Source: Acidobacteriota bacterium (GTDB taxonomy: Bacteria > Acidobacteriota > Terriglobia > Bryobacterales > Bryobacteraceae). From it: a stretch of 35,004 bases of DNA. Within the stretch, counting starts at the first letter, position 1. Each line of letters opens with the position of its first letter. The DNA lies in contig JACQZR010000052.1 in the NCBI GenBank assembly GCA_016213775.1, forward strand, positions 1 to 35,004, read 5' to 3'. Made by a program: the position numbers and the translations under genes. The notes under the pieces are model-generated. The model searched no databases. It was not told where the DNA came from and saw only the letters and a program-made list of their open reading frames with translations. Of the stretch, positions 1-6,407 are shown piece after piece.

Positions 1-1037
1 AGCGTGACGTTCGCAGTCAGCCATGGCGAATACACCATGCCACCAATATCCGGCGCTTGCTCGCTCACATACTGCAACACGAATGTCGGTGCGGCCCAAA
101 TGGCAAACTCGGCCAGATACTCCGTCTGTTCCGTCATCACGCGCACTCCCCGCTTCCCCGCTTCCACCCGCGTCACCATGCTTGACGGCTTCACATAGCG
201 CCCTACGCGTTTCAACAGTTGCCTGGTTAACCAGCCGTTGCCCTCGGGCCAGGTGAACGGTCCCTTGTCGTCATGCTCGCGCGAAGCAAAGTAGTGCACA
301 CCCGCCCACGCCGACGTATCCGCCGCCCGCGATCCGTAATCGTCGCGGCATCCATAGTCCACGTACCAATCGAGCGATGGCGCAGTGAAGCCGTTGTCGC
401 GCATCCACTGTTTCATCGAAACCCTATCCAACTCCGAAGCCTTCATTCCCGTAACAATCGGAATCGTGAACTCGCGCGTCGCGGCAAACTCCGCCATTCT
501 CTCCAGGAAACGCCGCAACTGCGCGCGCTCCTCGCGCGGCACCCCAACCTCCGGCTCCAACCCCTCCTGCCATTTCCCATGGATAAAAACCCGTTCCTGC
601 GGGCTGTGGCACAAGTGACGTTCTTCCCACCGTTCGCCGTCGCGCAGGCCAAGCTCCGCGCACAGCTCCCGAAGCAGAGCCGACTCTCGATTTGGCACCG
701 GCAGATAATGTGCAGCCCAAGGATATGCCGAAACTTCATTCTCTCCCCAGCGCGAATTCCCCCCTGGGTCCTTCTCCAACTCCAAAACCACAAAGTCGCG
801 AAATCCCTTCTTGTCCAGCCGCCACGCCGCCGACAACCCGCTGATGCCTCCACCAATAATCACCAGCGGAATCTTCACCTGCTGCTTCGGAGCGGTGAAC
901 TTCCGCCGGTCACGCAACTTGTGCCCAATGAGATGTGATTGATCGACGATGGTCCCCGACACCATCCTGTCGCTCTTCTGTGAAAGTCCCAACAGCGCCG
1001 CGCTGAATTGTCTTCGCCCAATGTCAACGGGCGACAT
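1..1037 (-). CDS. FAD-dependent oxidoreductase, flavin amine-oxidase-like (3' end beyond window)
   Basis: The reading frame opens at an ATG (1037-1035) and stays open to the window edge, giving about 345 residues of an incomplete protein. Residues 57-76 form a Rossmann FAD-binding motif (IPLVIIGGGISGLSAAWRL), followed by an acidic residue near 86 (VVLELE) and a PGG turn. This is the N-terminal layout of flavin amine oxidases and related NAD(P)-binding oxidoreductases. The N-terminus has a twin-arginine-like start (GRRQFSAALLGL), so Tat export is possible but the hydrophobic stretch is short. The start overlaps the end of the upstream spermidine-synthase-like gene by 14 bp, so the two are probably translationally coupled. 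From the context, an amine or polyamine-like substrate is an inference. The C-terminal substrate domain is not visible, so the exact subfamily is open. Confidence 0.85.
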   Translation of the reverse strand, partial: MSPVDIGRRQFSAALLGLSQKSDRMVSGTIVDQSHLIGHKLRDRRKFTAPKQQVKIPLVIIGGGISGLSAAWRLDKKGFRDFVVLELEKDPGGNSRWGENEVSAYPWAAHYLPVPNRESALLRELCAELGLRDGERWEERHLCHSPQERVFIHGKWQEGLEPEVGVPREERAQLRRFLERMAEFAATREFTIPIVTGMKASELDRVSMKQWMRDNGFTAPSLDWYVDYGCRDDYGSRAADTSAWAGVHYFASREHDDKGPFTWPEGNGWLTRQLLKRVGRYVKPSSMVTRVEAGKRGVRVMTEQTEYLAEFAIWAAPTFVLQYVSEQAPDIGGMVYSPWLTANVT

Positions 1038-2529
1038 CGGAAACCTCGCGCCACTCGCGCTCGTAGTAGCGCACCAGAACCTGATCGTTCAAACGGTTCG
1101 GCTCAGCCGGCACCGGGCCCATATCCTCAGGAAATTGAAACAACTGCGGCAACAGCGCGGCGTTCAGGAACTTCAGCCCAGCCGGCAGCGACGTGGGCAG
1201 CACATACTCGCGTTTCCCCGCCATCATGAAGCCCCACTCCCCAAACGCCGGCACGTACGCATGGTATGGAAATACCTTTAATCCCGCCTGCTTCATTGTC
1301 TCGCCGATGCACCAGAAACTCTGCCGCGCAAACAGCGGCGAAGTGCTCTGAGCCACCGCCAGCCCGCCCTCATTCAGATGCCGCGCCATCAATCGGTAGA
1401 ACGCCGTCGTGTACAACTTCCCCAACGAAAAATTCGTTGGATCGGGAAAGTCGATCACAATGAAATCGAACATCCGGTCCGTCGCGTCCAACCACGGAAA
1501 CGCATCCGAATTGATCACCTTCACCTTCGGCGCGGTCAGCGCCCCCTGATTCAGTCCCTTCAGAATCGGATGCGTGGAAAACAGCTCCGTCATTCCCGGA
1601 TCGAGGTCCACCAGTGTGATGCTCTCCAGCCGCGGGTACTTCAGAATTTCGCGCACTGCCAGCCCGTCGCCGCCCCCCAACACCAGCACGTGTTTCGCGC
1701 CGGCCACAGCCGCGAGCCCCGGATGCACCAGCGCCTCATGATACCGGTGCTCATCGCGCGAGCTGAACTGCAGATGCGCGTTCAGAAACAGCCGCAAATC
1801 GTCGCGATGTTTGGTCAAAACAATTCGCTGGTATTTTGTATTGCGCGCCAGAATCACCTCATCGGCATACAGCGCCCCATCGGCGATATCCAGAATATGA
1901 TCCGCATAAGACATCCCGATCCCGAGCGCCACCAGCACCACCAGGCACGCCGCGCGCAGACCCACCAGTCCGCCGATCCGTTCCCGAAACAGAAAGGTCG
2001 TCCACAGCGCCACCAGCACATTGATGACACCAAAGAACAGCGCCCCGCGCACAAGACCCAACTTCGGAACCAGCCACAAAGGAAAGATCAGCGAAGCCCC
2101 CAGCGCCCCCAGGTAATCAAACGTGAGCACTTGCGCCACAAGATCGCGAAACTCGAACCGGTCTTTCAGAATCCGCATCATCAGCGGAATCTCCAGTCCG
2201 ACAAGCACGCCAATGATCCCCACCAGTGCGTACAACAACACACGAAACCCCTGCGTGTAGGCAAACGCCAGAAACAGAATGGTGGAAGAAAAACCGCCGG
2301 CCACACCCACCATCAGCTCAATGGTGATGAACCGCGTTACCAGTCCCCTGCCGATGAACTTGGAGAGATAGCTCCCGATCCCCATCGCAAACAGGTAGCT
2401 GCCAATGATCGTAGAAAACTGCAACACGCTGTCGCCAAGCAAATAGCTCGCCAGCGTCCCCGCAAGCAGCTCATATACCAGCCCGCAAGCGGCAATCAGA
2501 AAAATCGTGACAAGAAGTAGAACCGCCAA
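1024..2529 (-). CDS. Membrane-anchored spermidine-synthase-like aminopropyltransferase
   Basis: This 501-residue protein has two parts. Residues about 3-205 hold a series of hydrophobic membrane segments. Residues about 225-490 form a class I methyltransferase-fold domain of the polyamine aminopropyltransferase family. Visible motifs are DEHRYHE (259-265, matching the DE-x-YHE motif of spermidine synthases), GGGDG (285-289, nucleotide loop), a VDLD segment at 307-310, SDAF at 341-344, and an Asp at 360 in IDFPDPT where spermidine synthases usually have DSSDP. The family transfers the aminopropyl group of decarboxylated AdoMet to an amine. The start is TTG, because a stop codon lies three codons upstream and the first membrane segment begins at once. 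A GAGGG stretch lies just before it. The gene lies 17 bp after the DUF350 gene and in the same unit as an AdoMet decarboxylase that would supply its co-substrate. The acceptor amine cannot be told from sequence. Confidence 0.9.
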   Translation of the reverse strand: MAVLLLVTIFLIAACGLVYELLAGTLASYLLGDSVLQFSTIIGSYLFAMGIGSYLSKFIGRGLVTRFITIELMVGVAGGFSSTILFLAFAYTQGFRVLLYALVGIIGVLVGLEIPLMMRILKDRFEFRDLVAQVLTFDYLGALGASLIFPLWLVPKLGLVRGALFFGVINVLVALWTTFLFRERIGGLVGLRAACLVVLVALGIGMSYADHILDIADGALYADEVILARNTKYQRIVLTKHRDDLRLFLNAHLQFSSRDEHRYHEALVHPGLAAVAGAKHVLVLGGGDGLAVREILKYPRLESITLVDLDPGMTELFSTHPILKGLNQGALTAPKVKVINSDAFPWLDATDRMFDFIVIDFPDPTNFSLGKLYTTAFYRLMARHLNEGGLAVAQSTSPLFARQSFWCIGETMKQAGLKVFPYHAYVPAFGEWGFMMAGKREYVLPTSLPAGLKFLNAALLPQLFQFPEDMGPVPAEPNRLNDQVLVRYYEREWREVSDVAR

Positions 2530-2546
2530 ACACCCTCACAAGCGCG

Positions 2547-2759
2547 CTAGTGCACGGCCGAGGCGATAATAATACACAGCCCCAACGACATCGCCCCCAC
2601 CATGATCGCCAGCGCGATGTTCTTCTCCTCCACAATCTCTTTCCACAAATCGTAGGGAGTCAGCTTGTCCACTACCACAAACGCAATCACGAAGATTAGA
2701 ATCCCCATCACTGCGAAGATCAATGCGTTGAGTGCGAATCCGGGATGGAACTCCGCCAT
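2547..2759 (-). CDS. DUF350 family small membrane protein
   Basis: A protein of 70 residues with two hydrophobic segments (about 10-30 and 48-67). They are separated by a conserved-looking charged linker, DKLTPYDLWKEIVEEKN, typical of the DUF350 (YjfL-like) family. The function of DUF350 is unknown. In E. coli the family member YjfL is encoded with a PspA-like protein and a glutathionylspermidine-synthetase-like enzyme, so a link to membrane stress and polyamines has precedent. The chosen ATG sits 9 nt after AGGAGG. An ATG two codons upstream (2765) overlaps the previous stop as ATGA but lies only 3 nt from AGGAGG, so it is less likely. It is sandwiched between a small membrane protein and the aminopropyltransferase. 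Confidence 0.8.
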   Translation of the reverse strand: MAEFHPGFALNALIFAVMGILIFVIAFVVVDKLTPYDLWKEIVEEKNIALAIMVGAMSLGLCIIIASAVH

Positions 2760-2761
2760 GC

Positions 2762-2950
2762 TCATTTCCCTCCTGTGTAGCGGCCAACGCCGCCGTAATA
2801 ATGCGAGCGCCATGCCCCCGGGTTGTCCCGGATCGACTTCGGCACATTCTTAACTTCATTCACTCGATCGAGGCTCCAGCCCCGAAACTGCGACCACCCC
2901 ACCCAGCCGGCGATCAATAGCCCGTAGATGGAAAACATAGATCGTAACAT
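2762..2950 (-). CDS. Small hypothetical membrane protein
   Basis: A 62-residue protein that starts with a hydrophobic stretch (about residues 4-19, SMFSIYGLLIAGWVGW) and continues with a polar part ending in a Gly/Tyr-rich tail (SHYYGGVGRYTGGK). I do not recognise a family. Its stop codon lies at the start region of the DUF350 gene (ATGA overlap with the upstream candidate ATG), and it follows the large DUF4178 gene by 15 bp. It is therefore very probably a real member of this transcription unit. A membrane-tethered accessory peptide is the most that can be inferred. Confidence 0.6.
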   Translation of the reverse strand: MLRSMFSIYGLLIAGWVGWSQFRGWSLDRVNEVKNVPKSIRDNPGAWRSHYYGGVGRYTGGK

Positions 2951-2965
2951 CTTTAAGCCTCGATT

Positions 2966-4297
2966 CTAATCCTCGTCCGAACTCGAACTCCCGCTCGATC
3001 CCCCGCCATAGTCGCTCTCCGCCCAACGCTTGCTCTCAAAACTCCCACTACGGATCGAAGTCCAAATCGGCGGAATCAACAGCAGTATCGCCCCAATCCA
3101 GAAATATCCCCACGTCGGAACATCGCGCTTCACCGTGATCTGGTACTTCACCGGAACACTGGCATTCGTCTCCGACGGATCGCCTTCCGGTTCCACTCGC
3201 AGATAATACTTGCCCGGCTCAATGGAAGGCAACACAACCGAATCCTTCTGCTTTCCCTCGGTCCAACTCCCGTCTGAGTCGCGCCCGCTGTAATAGCCCA
3301 CCTGCCGGCTGAAATCGAAGGCCTTCCCGTTCTCGGTATTGATCAAAGCGAGATTGAAAAACGCACCGTTGTTGTTGAGATCGGTGGCCAGGTCCACCTT
3401 CACGCTCGATGTTCTTCCCGGCAGTTCAAACACCGGCGTCACAAAGGAATGCTCCGCTTGCGTCCCGGCCTTGTTCTGCACGAAGGTGTAGGTCTCTTGA
3501 AACACTTTCCGGTTGGAATCAAACACCGACCAGAACAACTGCAGCACGAACAGCGCCGTCGTCCAGAACAGCCAGCGTCCCCACGACTTTGCCACCTCGC
3601 CCTTCTGCTGCGATGGCTGGTTGGCGAACACCCCCACTGGACTCGGCGGAGTGGTCTTCAACCCGAAGTTCTTCCAGATCGTCTCTGGCGCAGTGTACTC
3701 GCCAATCGACCAGTTCACCTCGTTGTCCGACGCTTCCGACGACAGAATATATGGCGGCGCGATATAGTCATCGCAAACGGCTTTCTCCCCCACGCGCACC
3801 TGCCACGGAAACTCGCCCATCACGTAAATGGTGGTCGCATCGTAGTGCTGGAAGTGCACGTACTTCGTCGCCAGATGCTGCTTCGCCGCGCGCCCGCCTT
3901 CCTGCGTGTTCATCGGCACACTTTTGATCGTCGTGATGTCGTTCCAGTGCCCGTTGTATTCGCTCAGGTACCGGAATCCCTTGAACGGATTGAAGAGAAG
4001 GTACTCGCTCCATGAGTACGGCACGCCGTCCGCCATCAGTTCCCGCACCTGGAATCCAATCACTTCATAGGGATCCCCGCGCATCTTTCCGCGCGTCCCC
4101 AGCGGGATCAACGGTTGATACCGTTCCGCCGCCTTGAACGTTTGCAGCACGGTCAGCGATGGCGACGTCGCATCCAGCACACTCAGGCATTGGATGCACA
4201 CCACCGTCGCCGCGCGTCCCATTCCACGCACCTGTACGCTACCGCCGCAGTTCGGGCAGCTCAGTGATTTCACATTCGGCTTCGGTGCCGAGGACAT
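2966..4297 (-). CDS. DUF4178 protein with N-terminal zinc ribbon and two membrane segments
   Basis: This 443-residue protein starts with a zinc ribbon (Cys14, Cys17, Cys34, Cys37). A DUF4178-type beta-rich region follows (about 60-210, with the WSEYLLFNP and GFRYLSEYNGHW stretches). There is a membrane segment at about 241-260, a domain of about 130 residues that would lie outside the cytoplasm, a second membrane segment at about 396-413, and a tail rich in Ser, Gly and Asp. DUF4178 has no known biochemical role. Its ATG directly follows the stop of the second DUF4178 gene, so the two are coupled. The topology would place the zinc ribbon and DUF4178 part in the cytoplasm and the 261-395 region in the periplasm, by inference from the two-helix layout. 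Confidence 0.85.
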   Translation of the reverse strand: MSSAPKPNVKSLSCPNCGGSVQVRGMGRAATVVCIQCLSVLDATSPSLTVLQTFKAAERYQPLIPLGTRGKMRGDPYEVIGFQVRELMADGVPYSWSEYLLFNPFKGFRYLSEYNGHWNDITTIKSVPMNTQEGGRAAKQHLATKYVHFQHYDATTIYVMGEFPWQVRVGEKAVCDDYIAPPYILSSEASDNEVNWSIGEYTAPETIWKNFGLKTTPPSPVGVFANQPSQQKGEVAKSWGRWLFWTTALFVLQLFWSVFDSNRKVFQETYTFVQNKAGTQAEHSFVTPVFELPGRTSSVKVDLATDLNNNGAFFNLALINTENGKAFDFSRQVGYYSGRDSDGSWTEGKQKDSVVLPSIEPGKYYLRVEPEGDPSETNASVPVKYQITVKRDVPTWGYFWIGAILLLIPPIWTSIRSGSFESKRWAESDYGGGSSGSSSSDED

Positions 4298-4933
4298 TTA
4301 CCAGCCTTCCAGTTCGCGCAGATTCTTCAAACGTAGCGTATCAAACTCGACGTGCTCCCCTAAGAATAGAAGCGGCGGTTCCTCTGAGTAGTCAATGGTA
4401 CCGAACTTCACGCCCTCCGTCTTCAGGTCCGCGAAGATCAAGTCCCTCTTGTCCCAATACTCAAACGGCAACTCGCCTTGCACGCCGAGATAATGCGCGC
4501 GGTTCACCGAAGTTAGCTCATACGTCACGCCCTGCCACGAAAACCTCTGCCCGGGCCGCACCTGCTCTTGCGGAGGCAGGGCAGTTTGAGGCTTCACCAT
4601 CCGCGTCACCGCATACTCCGCCATCGCGTCTGACAGCCACAGGCTCTCGCCGGTATTCGTTACGCAGTGCCACTCGTTCCAATACCCTTGCTCGTATTGG
4701 TAGATGATCCGCCCCACCACGCGGAATGCCTTGTTGCCATAGATTCCCTCGGTCAACAATTGAATCGGGGAAACCTCCGGCGGCAGATCCGCCACCTGCC
4801 CCACCTTCTTCAGATCGACGTCGTGCCGTACCAGAATCGACTGGCAATACGGACAGGTCGTCTGTACAGCGCTCGAAAACTGAAACTCAATCGGCGCCCC
4901 GCAATTCGGACATGTGCTCTTTGGCTGCGACAT
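4298..4933 (-). CDS. DUF4178 protein with N-terminal zinc ribbon, soluble
   Basis: A 211-residue protein with an N-terminal zinc ribbon (Cys8, Cys11, Cys27, Cys30) followed by a DUF4178 domain (about 50-205, with GYWNEWHCVT and WLSDAMAEY). It has no membrane segment, so it looks like the soluble partner of the larger DUF4178 protein encoded next. The reading frame is open further upstream, but ATG 4933 is preferred. It lies after a GGAGGGG stretch and overlaps the SpeD stop by one base (TAATG), a standard coupling arrangement. The two DUF4178 proteins share the Cys4 start plus DUF4178 layout, which suggests duplication with later gain of membrane segments in one copy. The role is unknown. Confidence 0.85.
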   Translation of the reverse strand: MSQPKSTCPNCGAPIEFQFSSAVQTTCPYCQSILVRHDVDLKKVGQVADLPPEVSPIQLLTEGIYGNKAFRVVGRIIYQYEQGYWNEWHCVTNTGESLWLSDAMAEYAVTRMVKPQTALPPQEQVRPGQRFSWQGVTYELTSVNRAHYLGVQGELPFEYWDKRDLIFADLKTEGVKFGTIDYSEEPPLLFLGEHVEFDTLRLKNLRELEGW

Positions 4934-5283
4934 TATTCCCCTCCGTATTGCCGGTCCATCCGCCGCACGCGTACCGACACGGCTCCAAACTCCGCACCCA
5001 GGTAGTACACCCAGTTGAACTCCGGCCGCGGTTTGCAGCAGAACAGACTCAAACACAACGAACCATGTTCCGGAAAAGTATGACAAGCGAGGTGAGACTC
5101 GGCAAGAATGACGAATCCGGTGAACCCGCCTGGCTCAGGAAACTGATGCCACTGCTGCTGCTCCACCGGATTCAGTTCCAGCGTTTCGATAAGCTGTGCA
5201 AACAGCCCTTGCAACCGGCCGGGATCCCGTAGGCTCTCCGCCGAACACCCGTAGGCGTCAACAATCCACTCGCGGCCCGTCAT
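4933..5283 (-). CDS. speD: S-adenosylmethionine decarboxylase proenzyme, prokaryotic type
   Basis: A small pyruvoyl enzyme of 116 residues that would decarboxylate AdoMet to give the aminopropyl donor for polyamine synthesis. The self-processing site is visible as LAESHLACHTFPEHG. Ser63 would become the pyruvoyl group, with His68 and Cys83 (in LFCC) as the other catalytic residues. With the ATG at 5283 these fall on the same numbers as the well-studied Thermotoga maritima enzyme (Ser63, His68, Cys83), which supports this start. An in-frame GTG at 5301 would add six residues. Neither start has a strong ribosome-binding site. The gene lies about 70 bp after the SPFH gene and overlaps the next gene by one base. 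Its product is the co-substrate needed by the aminopropyltransferase in the same unit. Confidence 0.92.
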   Translation of the reverse strand: MTGREWIVDAYGCSAESLRDPGRLQGLFAQLIETLELNPVEQQQWHQFPEPGGFTGFVILAESHLACHTFPEHGSLCLSLFCCKPRPEFNWVYYLGAEFGAVSVRVRRMDRQYGGE

Positions 5284-5351
5284 GGAGTTTGCACAAGACA
5301 CTCAGATTCTTTATCTGTGTGCATCTGTGTTCATTAGTGGCTTCACCCGAC

Positions 5352-6407
5352 TCACCCTTGCGCAGCCCCGCAATTCGGACAGAACTTCGCCTTGCCCGGC
5401 ATGCTCTGTCCGCACTCCATGCAGAACTTGCTCCCGGCAGCGGCGGCGCCACCCGCGGCAGGTCCTGCCGCAGGAGCAGCCGGAGGCGCCGGAGCCCCAC
5501 CCTGCGGACCTTGCGGCGGTGTCGGCGGAGGATGCCCGCCCATGAACGGCTGCTGCACCGCACCCATCATCGCCTGCGCCATCGCCACACCCATTCCCAA
5601 CTGCGCGCCCATCGCCGCCGTTCCGCCGCCTTCATTGGCCGCGGCAATCGGCATCGACTGCGCGACCTGAAACTGCGTGTACCGGTTCATATCGCCGATC
5701 ATGTTCATGCCGATGCGTTCGTCCAGGCGCTTCTGCAATTCTTCCGGCAGCGACAGGTTCTCAACAACCAGGCTGTCCAGGGCGATGCCGAGCTTGTCGA
5801 ACTCCGGTTTCAGATGTTGCGATATCAGATTCGCGAGTTCCACCTGATTCGCAGCCATATCCAGAAAAGGAATCTGGCTCTCGGCAAACGTATCGCTCAT
5901 CCGCCCGATGATCGTGTTCCGCAGTTGCCCTTCGATCTCGGCAACCGTGTACGTTTCGCGCGTACCGCTGACGCTCCTGTGAAACGCCCCGGGATCCGCC
6001 AGGTGCCACGAATAAATCCCGTACGCCCGCAGCCGCACTGCACCGAAATCCTTGTCCCGCACCGTGATCGGAGTCGCCGTGCCCCACTTCTGATTCACCT
6101 GTATACGAGTCGAGAAGAAGTACACGTCGCTCTTGAACGGTGACTGGAACAACTTGTCCCAGTTCATCAGGTTCGTCAACAACGGCAGCGTCTGCGTGTT
6201 CAGCGTGTGTAGCCCTGGACCAAATACGTCCGCCACCTTGCCTTCGTTTACGAACGCCGCCATCTGCGATTCGCGCACCGTCAGTTTGGCGCCGTTCTGG
6301 ATTTCCATGTCCTGCATCGGGAAACGGGATGCCAATATCCCATCCTCCGGTTCGGTCCAGTGGATAACGTCGATAAATTGTTTCTTGAGAAAGTCTCGAA
6401 TGGACAT
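5352..6407 (-). CDS. SPFH (band 7) domain protein with C-terminal zinc ribbon
   Basis: The protein has 351 residues. Residues about 20-260 match the SPFH/virion-core-like family of bacterial proteins, with stretches such as FGPGLHTLNT and RLRAYGIYSW. A low-complexity Pro/Gly/Ala linker follows (about 285-325). A C-terminal zinc ribbon ends the protein (Cys329, Cys332, Cys343, Cys346). SPFH proteins form large rings or scaffolds at membranes. This member has no obvious N-terminal membrane helix, so it may be recruited to the membrane by partners. It is the first gene of the eight-gene minus-strand unit. The ATG follows a GGAG stretch, and a TATACT hexamer lies about 25 nt upstream. A structural or scaffold role for the downstream membrane proteins is inferred from position. 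Confidence 0.88.
   Translation of the reverse strand: MSIRDFLKKQFIDVIHWTEPEDGILASRFPMQDMEIQNGAKLTVRESQMAAFVNEGKVADVFGPGLHTLNTQTLPLLTNLMNWDKLFQSPFKSDVYFFSTRIQVNQKWGTATPITVRDKDFGAVRLRAYGIYSWHLADPGAFHRSVSGTRETYTVAEIEGQLRNTIIGRMSDTFAESQIPFLDMAANQVELANLISQHLKPEFDKLGIALDSLVVENLSLPEELQKRLDERIGMNMIGDMNRYTQFQVAQSMPIAAANEGGGTAAMGAQLGMGVAMAQAMMGAVQQPFMGGHPPPTPPQGPQGGAPAPPAAPAAGPAAGGAAAAGSKFCMECGQSMPGKAKFCPNCGAAQG

What the first reader, a model, noticed from the sequence alone, without database searches (positions are those of the whole stretch)
1..6407. Eight-gene SPFH, DUF4178, DUF350 and polyamine-enzyme module
One minus-strand unit joins an SPFH/zinc-ribbon protein, an AdoMet decarboxylase, two DUF4178 zinc-ribbon proteins, a small membrane protein, a DUF350 protein, a membrane-anchored aminopropyltransferase and an FAD amine-oxidase-like protein. 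The gaps are short and several genes overlap. DUF350 occurs with a PspA-like protein and a glutathionylspermidine-synthetase-like enzyme in the E. coli yjf operon, so a membrane-stress link has precedent. This fuller set with an SPFH scaffold, its own SpeD and a membrane SpeE-like enzyme suggests a dedicated membrane-associated polyamine or modified-polyamine system. Whether it is already described in this exact form cannot be decided here.
Basis: partly seen in the sequence, partly recalled or inferred. Interest (0 to 1): 0.75.

Follow-up and report, generated by a model that had tools for sequence, protein, structure and literature searches.

The report
Lysine-tailed membrane peptide and aminopropyltransferase operon
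A conserved bacterial gene cluster pairs a membrane-bound polyamine-type enzyme with a tiny membrane protein whose last residue is nearly always a lysine, which suggests that the cell builds a polyamine tail directly on a protein, although this has not been tested.

Summary
The eight genes are real, at the stated coordinates, and packed as one unit (the last is cut by the contig end). The single-system idea holds: DUF4178, small protein, DUF350, membrane SpeE in this order recurs across Acidobacteriota and other phyla. The full order with SPFH, SpeD and FAD oxidase recurs in 16 of 80 named loci.

The kind is in print. The phage-shock-protein survey (PMC11237479) describes DUF4178/DUF350/TM-SpeE operons; Li et al. 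2019 (not held; recalled) found that such SpeE fusions do not make spermidine.

I did not find the 62-residue protein at 2762-2950 described. A rule blind to the C-terminus picked a candidate in 122 of 137 loci; 119 end in lysine (-GK or -HK), against 5% background. Where no such gene was found, the DUF4178 protein itself often ends in -HK (6 of 12 such loci). Seven of seven PspA-type partner proteins end in -GK. Partners of peptide-spermidine-ligase-type genes do not (0 of 7; five end in -GG).

Best explanation: membrane SpeE aminopropylates this C-terminal lysine, making a protein-borne polyamine tail in the envelope. The evidence is genomic only; one locus lacked any tail, and the -GG part overlaps a ribosome-binding site.

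The parts
5352..6407 (-). SPFH/Band-7 protein with C-terminal zinc ribbon, first gene; optional member of the module
   Evidence: Pfam PF13421 E 7e-74, PF13240 4e-6; SPFH found in 3 of 70 and 36 of 80 loci
4933..5301 (-). SpeD, S-adenosylmethionine decarboxylase (class 1b type), the only PF02675 match of this genome
   Evidence: PF02675 E 2e-24; one match in own genome; ESHxxxHTxPE motif in 87 of 90 SpeD ORFs of the loci
4298..4936 (-). DUF4178 protein a, N-terminal zinc ribbon
   Evidence: PF13785 E 2e-14
2966..4297 (-). DUF4178 protein b: zinc ribbon, DUF4178 beta domain, helix 230-260, beta-sandwich 263-391, helix 396-426; in most relatives fused to protein a
   Evidence: PF13785 E 5e-16; AlphaFold2 model mean pLDDT 91.3; alignment A2
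2762..2950 (-). 62-aa small membrane protein (called SMP here), N-terminal hydrophobic helix, C-terminus -TGGK; candidate amine acceptor
   Evidence: 63 of 63 profile-found relatives end in K; blind rule 119 of 122; no Pfam family over cut-off
2547..2759 (-). DUF350, half-length two-helix form (70 aa)
   Evidence: PF03994 E 5e-15 over profile 7-65 of 133; start from the DNA at the SMP stop
1024..2529 (-). Membrane aminopropyltransferase: about seven N-terminal TM helices fused to a SpeE domain
   Evidence: NCBIfam PRK03612 E 4.5e-203; best PDB sequence and fold match 1uir; GGGDG and DExxYHE in 147 of 147 long SpeE ORFs
3..1037 (-). FAD amine-oxidase-like protein, N-terminal RRQF (Tat-like) signal; cut by the contig end
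   Evidence: Pfam; profile A5 matches amine oxidases in PDB; N-termini

Best explanation
The module builds an aminopropyl (polyamine-like) tail on the C-terminal lysine of a small membrane-anchored protein. SpeD makes decarboxylated S-adenosylmethionine (inferred from family and motif). The membrane SpeE transfers its aminopropyl group to the epsilon-amine of the C-terminal lysine of the SMP (inferred). The product, a lysine carrying -(CH2)3-NH2, is chemically close to a spermidine tail and gives the envelope a tethered polycation. The exported FAD oxidase removes or further converts the tail (inferred). DUF4178, DUF350 and SPFH or PspA hold and regulate the complex at the membrane (inferred). 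Shown here: gene content, conserved order, co-occurrence with SpeD, retained catalytic motifs, and the lysine tail in several unrelated protein frameworks. Not shown: any reaction, the side of the membrane, or co-transcription.
For: (1) C-terminal lysine: 119 of 122 genes chosen by a rule blind to the C-terminus; in each of the 3 others the rule's second candidate ends in K. Background 116 of 2250 ORFs; other genes of the operon: DUF350 0 of 124, SpeE 3 of 144, FAD 1 of 112, SpeD 3 of 88, SPFH 0 of 39, DUF4178 11 of 176. (2) Of 12 loci where the rule found no gene, 6 (Rubrivivax, Rhizobacter, Aquabacterium and kin) carry the tail, hydrophobic stretch plus Gly-rich ...HK, on the DUF4178 protein; I looked for this after suspecting it. 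Two more such proteins are in L232 and L233. (3) Partner proteins of PspA-type operons, mostly lipoprotein-like, end in SGK, GGK or FGK in 7 of 7 loci (6 distinct). An Alteromonas 510-aa lipoprotein-like partner and an Ensifer 78-aa partner also end in SGK. (4) All 15 genomes whose SpeE locus had no DUF4178 on the same strand carry DUF4178 elsewhere; in the 13 not cut by a contig end a lysine-tailed partner is present. (5) The tail goes with SpeE: DUF1190 partners of glutathionylspermidine-synthase-type (YjfC-like) genes, two of them E. coli genes named peptide--spermidine ligase, end in K in 0 of 7, in GG in 5. (6) SpeE keeps GGGDG and DExxYHE (147 of 147) but has DFPDP in 137 of 147 where 1uir has DLTDP, so the donor site is kept and the acceptor wall differs. 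(7) Tail-bearing loci without a recognised FAD neighbour exist (L036, L066, L194), which favours SpeE over the oxidase as the partner of the tail.
Against: No biochemical data. In the GGK group codon -3 is GGA in 67 of 85, so the -GG- overlaps a GGAGG ribosome-binding site of DUF350; only the lysine is free of this doubt. One locus, L096, has DUF4178 and SpeD but neither SpeE nor a convincing lysine-tailed gene nearby. Topology is unsettled: positive residues put the SpeE domain outside if there are 7 helices, where decarboxylated AdoMet is not expected, while the AlphaFold secondary structure merges helices 5 and 6; if the domain is inside, a lipoprotein tail would have to be modified before export. 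SMP flank charges do not decide the orientation. The own genome has two PF02784 and three PF00491 matches, so it may make putrescine, the normal SpeE substrate.
Confidence: 0.4

Rival explanations
1. The membrane SpeE aminopropylates another substrate, such as a lipid head group or a small amine; the lysine tail is a charged docking or assembly element of the complex.
For: SpeE is membrane-embedded; the tails are cationic and the -GK/-HK end could bind DUF350, DUF4178 or anionic lipid. PMC11237479 (section 20 passage) proposes aminopropylation of other substrates.
Against: A docking element would be expected to be longer and shared; here only the last residue is common to unrelated frameworks. 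No lipid enzyme is a constant neighbour in the maps.
Confidence: 0.27
2. It is the genome's ordinary spermidine pathway: SpeE makes spermidine from putrescine, and the other genes are regulators.
For: SpeD is the only PF02675 match and this SpeE the only strong PF01564 match in this genome (a second PF01564 match is weak, E 2e-5). PF02784 and PF00491 matches may give putrescine. Catalytic motifs are kept.
Against: It does not explain the lysine tail, the exported oxidase or the membrane fusion. Li et al. 2019 (recalled, not read; title only in reference lists) reported absent spermidine and no complementation of an E. coli speE deletion by such fusions.
Confidence: 0.15
3. The exported FAD oxidase acts directly on the C-terminal lysine, as a lysyl-oxidase-like step giving an aldehyde for cross-linking; SpeE works on something else.
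For: FAD protein is amine-oxidase-like with RR in the N-terminal region in 114 of 118 and RR plus lipobox in 50 of 118 by a lax pattern.
Against: The tail persists where no FAD gene was recognised nearby (L036, L066, L194). The oxidase match is confined mainly to the FAD-binding part.
Confidence: 0.1
4. The lysine codon is a by-product of translational coupling: the end of the small gene is shaped by the ribosome-binding site of the next gene.
For: GGA GGx AAR at the end of many acidobacterial small genes with the next ATG a few bases on.
Against: In 31 deduplicated -HK genes the codons are CAC/CAT and AAA/AAG with all three stop codons and varied distance to the next gene, and several have their own AGGAG after the stop. 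PspA-type partners with GGK lack GGAGG there. DUF4178 proteins with the tail end the same way.
Confidence: 0.03

Closest known systems
PspA/CesT operon with 7TM-spermidine synthase, DUF350, DUF4178 and Ctha_1186 lipoprotein (second group of PMC11237479)
   Same: DUF4178, DUF350 and TM-SpeE with a small envelope partner between DUF4178 and DUF350; my type P loci (for example L036, L066) look like this group
   Different: The window has no PspA/CesT or lipoprotein; it has SPFH, SpeD, two DUF4178 proteins, a half-length DUF350, a 62-aa lysine-tailed protein and an FAD oxidase
Band-7/AdoMet decarboxylase/polyamine oxidase variant of the ATP-grasp group (same paper)
   Same: Band-7 replaces PspA; SpeD and an oxidase present
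   Different: That group is built on an ATP-grasp glutathionylspermidine-synthetase-like enzyme; here the enzyme is a TM-SpeE and no ATP-grasp gene was found among the eight
AdoMetDC plus MFS-SpdSyn fusion plus DUF350 clusters (Li et al. 2019, Biochem J; recalled, title seen only)
   Same: Same enzyme pair and DUF350
   Different: As I recall, the acceptor was left unknown; the lysine-tailed protein is the candidate proposed here
E. coli yjfIJKLMC and ygiBC (peptide--spermidine ligases YjfC, YgiC)
   Same: PspA or DUF350 context; an envelope partner next to the enzyme
   Different: Partner ends in GG and the enzyme is an ATP-grasp ligase; here the partner ends in K and the enzyme is an aminopropyltransferase
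Aminopropylated microcin C (Kulikovsky 2025, title seen in the reference list of PMC13381572)
   Same: Decarboxylated AdoMet used to aminopropylate a peptide product
   Different: Antibiotic peptide, not a membrane protein of a stress-type operon

Membership tests
PSP group 2 operon (PMC11237479) | DUF4178, DUF350 and TM-fused spermidine-synthase-like gene together | tested here: met
PSP group 2 operon (PMC11237479) | CesT/Tir-PspA dyad in the operon | tested here: not met
   No PspA among the eight genes; the two PspA matches of the genome are on other contigs, C57 and C260
PSP group 2 operon (PMC11237479) | Ctha_1186 lipoprotein | tested here: not met
   The partner is a 62-aa protein; Ctha_1186 itself was not compared, only the lipoprotein-like partners of type P loci
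Polyamine aminopropyltransferase (PRK03612) | Curated NCBIfam score cut-off | tested here: met
   675 bits against cut-off 472
Spermidine synthase (function) | Uses putrescine | not testable with these tools
   Needs an assay; acceptor-side DFPDP differs from DLTDP of 1uir
S-adenosylmethionine decarboxylase, class 1b | Self-cleavage motif ESHxxxHTxPE | tested here: met
   ESHLACHTFPE in the window; 87 of 90 relatives. NCBIfam TIGR03330 scores 70.3 against cut-off 75.65, just below
Peptide-spermidine ligase system (YjfC/YgiC type) | ATP-grasp ligase with a GG-ended DUF1190 partner | tested here: not met
   No such gene among the eight; partner ends in GGK
Known anti-phage defence system | PADLOC model match for module genes | tested here: not met
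   Only local matches: SpeE to mad2 (E 2e-17, residues 274-419) and FAD to C3a186 (3e-4); none for the other six

The most novel reading that the evidence does not exclude
A new kind of protein modification in bacteria: a genetically encoded C-terminal lysine on a membrane-anchored peptide is aminopropylated in place by a membrane spermidine-synthase-like enzyme, giving a tethered polyamine tail. It would be the counterpart of the E. coli-type route in which an ATP-grasp ligase joins ready-made spermidine to a peptide, there with -GG-ended partners. The chemistry may take place on the outer face of the membrane, followed by an exported amine oxidase.
Probability: 0.33. Interest if true: 0.92.

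Novelty: new variant of a known kind. Interest (0 to 1): 0.74.

Why it matters
Membrane-fused spermidine synthases beside SpeD and DUF350 are common in bacteria, but their acceptor is, as far as I recall the literature, unknown. A lysine tail that stays while the protein carrying it changes (small membrane protein, lipoprotein-like partner, or the end of DUF4178 itself) gives a concrete, testable acceptor. If right, polyamines in the envelope can be protein-bound and encoded, with two separate enzyme solutions (ligase on -GG, transferase on -K) in related stress operons.

Tried and rejected
Defence system: PADLOC gave only local matches. Solved relatives of DUF4178: the profile hits only zinc ribbons such as LysW, and Foldseek matches to the DUF4178b model are low TM-score beta-sandwiches, so no function was read from them. 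No putrescine, hence no spermidine: tested and not supported, as PF02784 and PF00491 matches exist (PF01276 none). SMP as Pfam DUF3262: one of 24 members, E 0.0013, below cut-off. Orientation of the SMP from flanking charges: not decided. The GG of GGK as a peptide motif: weakened by its overlap with a ribosome-binding site. In one search I first listed ORFs that were hydrophobic or ended in K, which is not blind; one search repeats the choice with a rule that ignores the C-terminus. The 28 non-acidobacterial genes were taken and so are not a blind set. The 80 named loci are the best 80 of 568 by similarity, not a random sample. Of nine YjfC-type plasmid loci fetched, five had an annotated DUF1190 gene; three had none and the unannotated Photobacterium record gave none in my ORF look.
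Full report
Observation. The eight minus-strand genes are present as described and closely packed. The window is the whole contig, so the FAD gene is incomplete. In this genome the module holds the only DUF4178 pair, the only SpeD and the only strong SpeE match.

Conservation. DUF4178 occurs in 76 of 396 sampled genomes of the phylum, 31 of 211 genera. I fetched the neighbourhoods of the other 75. Two types appear. Type W, like the window (70 loci by my profile), has the order SpeD, DUF4178 twice (mostly one fused gene), a small membrane protein (SMP), half-length DUF350, membrane SpeE, FAD oxidase; counts are. Type P (L036, L048, L066, L085, L088, L106) has a single DUF4178, a lipoprotein-like partner and longer DUF350; PspA was confirmed by Pfam in L106. 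SpeD is present in 74 of the 76 DUF4178 genomes and in 63 of the other 320 (Fisher p 4e-39, not corrected for relatedness). A scan of named genomes with SpeE gave 80 loci, the best of 568: DUF4178 in 66, FAD in 64, DUF350 in 58, SpeD in 48, SPFH in 36. The full order SPFH, SpeD, DUF4178, SMP, DUF350, SpeE, FAD was found in 16 of these 80 and in 2 of the 76 phylum loci, window included. By record title the carriers include Bryobacterales, Terriglobales, Gemmatimonadetes, Alpha- and Betaproteobacteria, Bacteroidetes, Verrucomicrobia, Planctomycetota, Elusimicrobia, Leptospiraceae and Myxococcales. A Novosphingobium plasmid carries it with public annotation: SPFH, DUF4178, DUF4178, a 48-aa hypothetical protein, DUF350, aminopropyltransferase, FAD-dependent oxidoreductase, SpeD.

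The lysine tail. The SMP has no Pfam family over cut-off. Its relatives found by profile end in K in 63 of 63 (60 GGK, 2 YHK, 1 SGK). I then chose the gene by a rule blind to its C-terminus: an ORF of 38-110 aa with a hydrophobic stretch, starting within -60 to +120 nt of the DUF4178 stop, not DUF350. Of 137 loci, 3 were at contig ends, 12 had no candidate and 122 had one; 119 of the 122 end in K (88 GK, 31 HK), and in the other 3 the second candidate does. Of the 12 without candidate, 6 have the tail on the DUF4178 protein itself, 3 have an SMP that the rule missed by distance or hydrophobicity (L037, L084, L120), 2 are type P with a GGK-ended partner (L048, L161, L161 being the same contig as L229), and 1, L096, has no convincing gene. 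In the Novosphingobium plasmid the 48-aa protein ends in SHK. Controls within the operon and background are: 116 of 2250 other ORFs of 250 aa or more end in K, and none of the other gene families is near that of the SMP.

The tail in other frameworks. Partner proteins of the type P loci end in SGK, GGK or FGK in 7 of 7 (L085 and L088 alike). An Alteromonas plasmid operon with TelA in place of PspA has a 510-aa lipoprotein-like partner ending in SGK, and an Ensifer plasmid has a 78-aa membrane protein ending in SGK just before SpeE. Fifteen genomes whose SpeE locus lacked DUF4178 on the same strand all have DUF4178 (two matches in 14, one in G403). Thirteen could be judged and all have a lysine-tailed partner: 10 SMP, 2 DUF4178 tails, 1 type P partner; two are cut by contig ends.

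A contrasting system. E. coli yjfC and ygiC are named peptide--spermidine ligases in RefSeq; Pederick et al. 2023 was seen only as a title. Their DUF1190 neighbours YjfM and YgiB end in GG. With five more from plasmids, 5 of 7 end in GG, one in CG, one in GS, and none in K. So the end of the partner differs with the enzyme.

A caution. In the GGK group the last codons are mostly GGA GGx AAR, a GGAGG site just before the DUF350 start (67 of 85 have GGA at -3). The double glycine is thus partly or wholly a translation signal. The lysine is not explained this way: the 31 -HK genes have mixed codons and stops and several have their own site after the stop, and the type P partners lack GGAGG there.

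Enzymes. SpeE keeps GGGDG and DExxYHE in 147 of 147 long ORFs, with DFPDP in 137, against DLTDP in 1uir. Its AlphaFold model (mean pLDDT 91.4) matches solved aminopropyltransferases. SpeD has ESHxxxHTxPE in 87 of 90. The FAD proteins begin with an RR-containing, signal-like N-terminus (114 of 118 with RR in the region, a lax test; 50 of 118 with RR and a lipobox), the window's with RRQF but no lipobox.

Topology. Counts of K and R in the SpeE loops (22 sequences) favour N-in and, with seven helices, a catalytic domain outside. The predicted secondary structure shows residues 127-180 as one helix, so the helix count is open. If outside, decarboxylated AdoMet would need a route across the membrane; if inside, lipoprotein-like partners would need modification before export. 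This is the weakest point of the model.

Reading. I take the lysine as the acceptor of the aminopropyl group. This fits the fixed last residue, the change of carrier, the link with SpeD and SpeE, and the recalled report that such SpeE fusions do not make spermidine. The role of the FAD oxidase, DUF4178, DUF350 and SPFH is conjecture. The ordinary spermidine pathway is not excluded, as this genome may make putrescine.

Literature. DUF4178 is found in one paper of the held library, PMC11237479; I read its section 19 whole and passages elsewhere. It names the operon kind, a lipoprotein and a band-7 variant, but section 19 mentions neither a small lysine-tailed protein nor C-terminal lysines. A search on aminopropyl, C-terminal lysine and related terms gave two papers unrelated by title. 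Papers outside the library may say more.

Noticed in passing
L194:9539-10645: In an Alteromonas plasmid operon with SpeE, SpeD, DUF4178 and DUF350, a TelA (toxic anion resistance) gene stands where other operons have PspA or SPFH.
   Followed up: partly
window:4298-4297 boundary; L038, L039, L059, L081, L095: The two DUF4178 proteins are separate genes in the window and a few relatives but fused into one gene of about 640-800 aa in most phylum loci.
   Followed up: partly
window:5352-6407 and L195:3583-4578, L226, L231-L233: The SPFH protein ends in a zinc ribbon in the window but in a SHOCT-like stretch in proteobacterial relatives (SHOCT E 2.5e-4, below cut-off, in L195).
   Followed up: no
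A4 alignment; window:4933-5301: Operon SpeD has NLYCC/LSLFCC where canonical SpeD has the DVFTCG type; in the phylum search operon SpeD scores about 70-95 bits and many unlinked SpeD 115-158 bits, which suggests a separate subfamily.
   Followed up: no
L067:15751-16830 (cluster c1, 25 of 76 loci): A polytopic membrane protein of about 360 aa without Pfam match often follows the FAD gene in one acidobacterial group.
   Followed up: no
window:6500-7516: A divergent S66 LD-carboxypeptidase gene starts 92 bases from the first gene of the module.
   Followed up: no
L118:5246-5535: SpeD appears as two overlapping ORFs in this contig, so the locus was not counted in the full-order tally.
   Followed up: no
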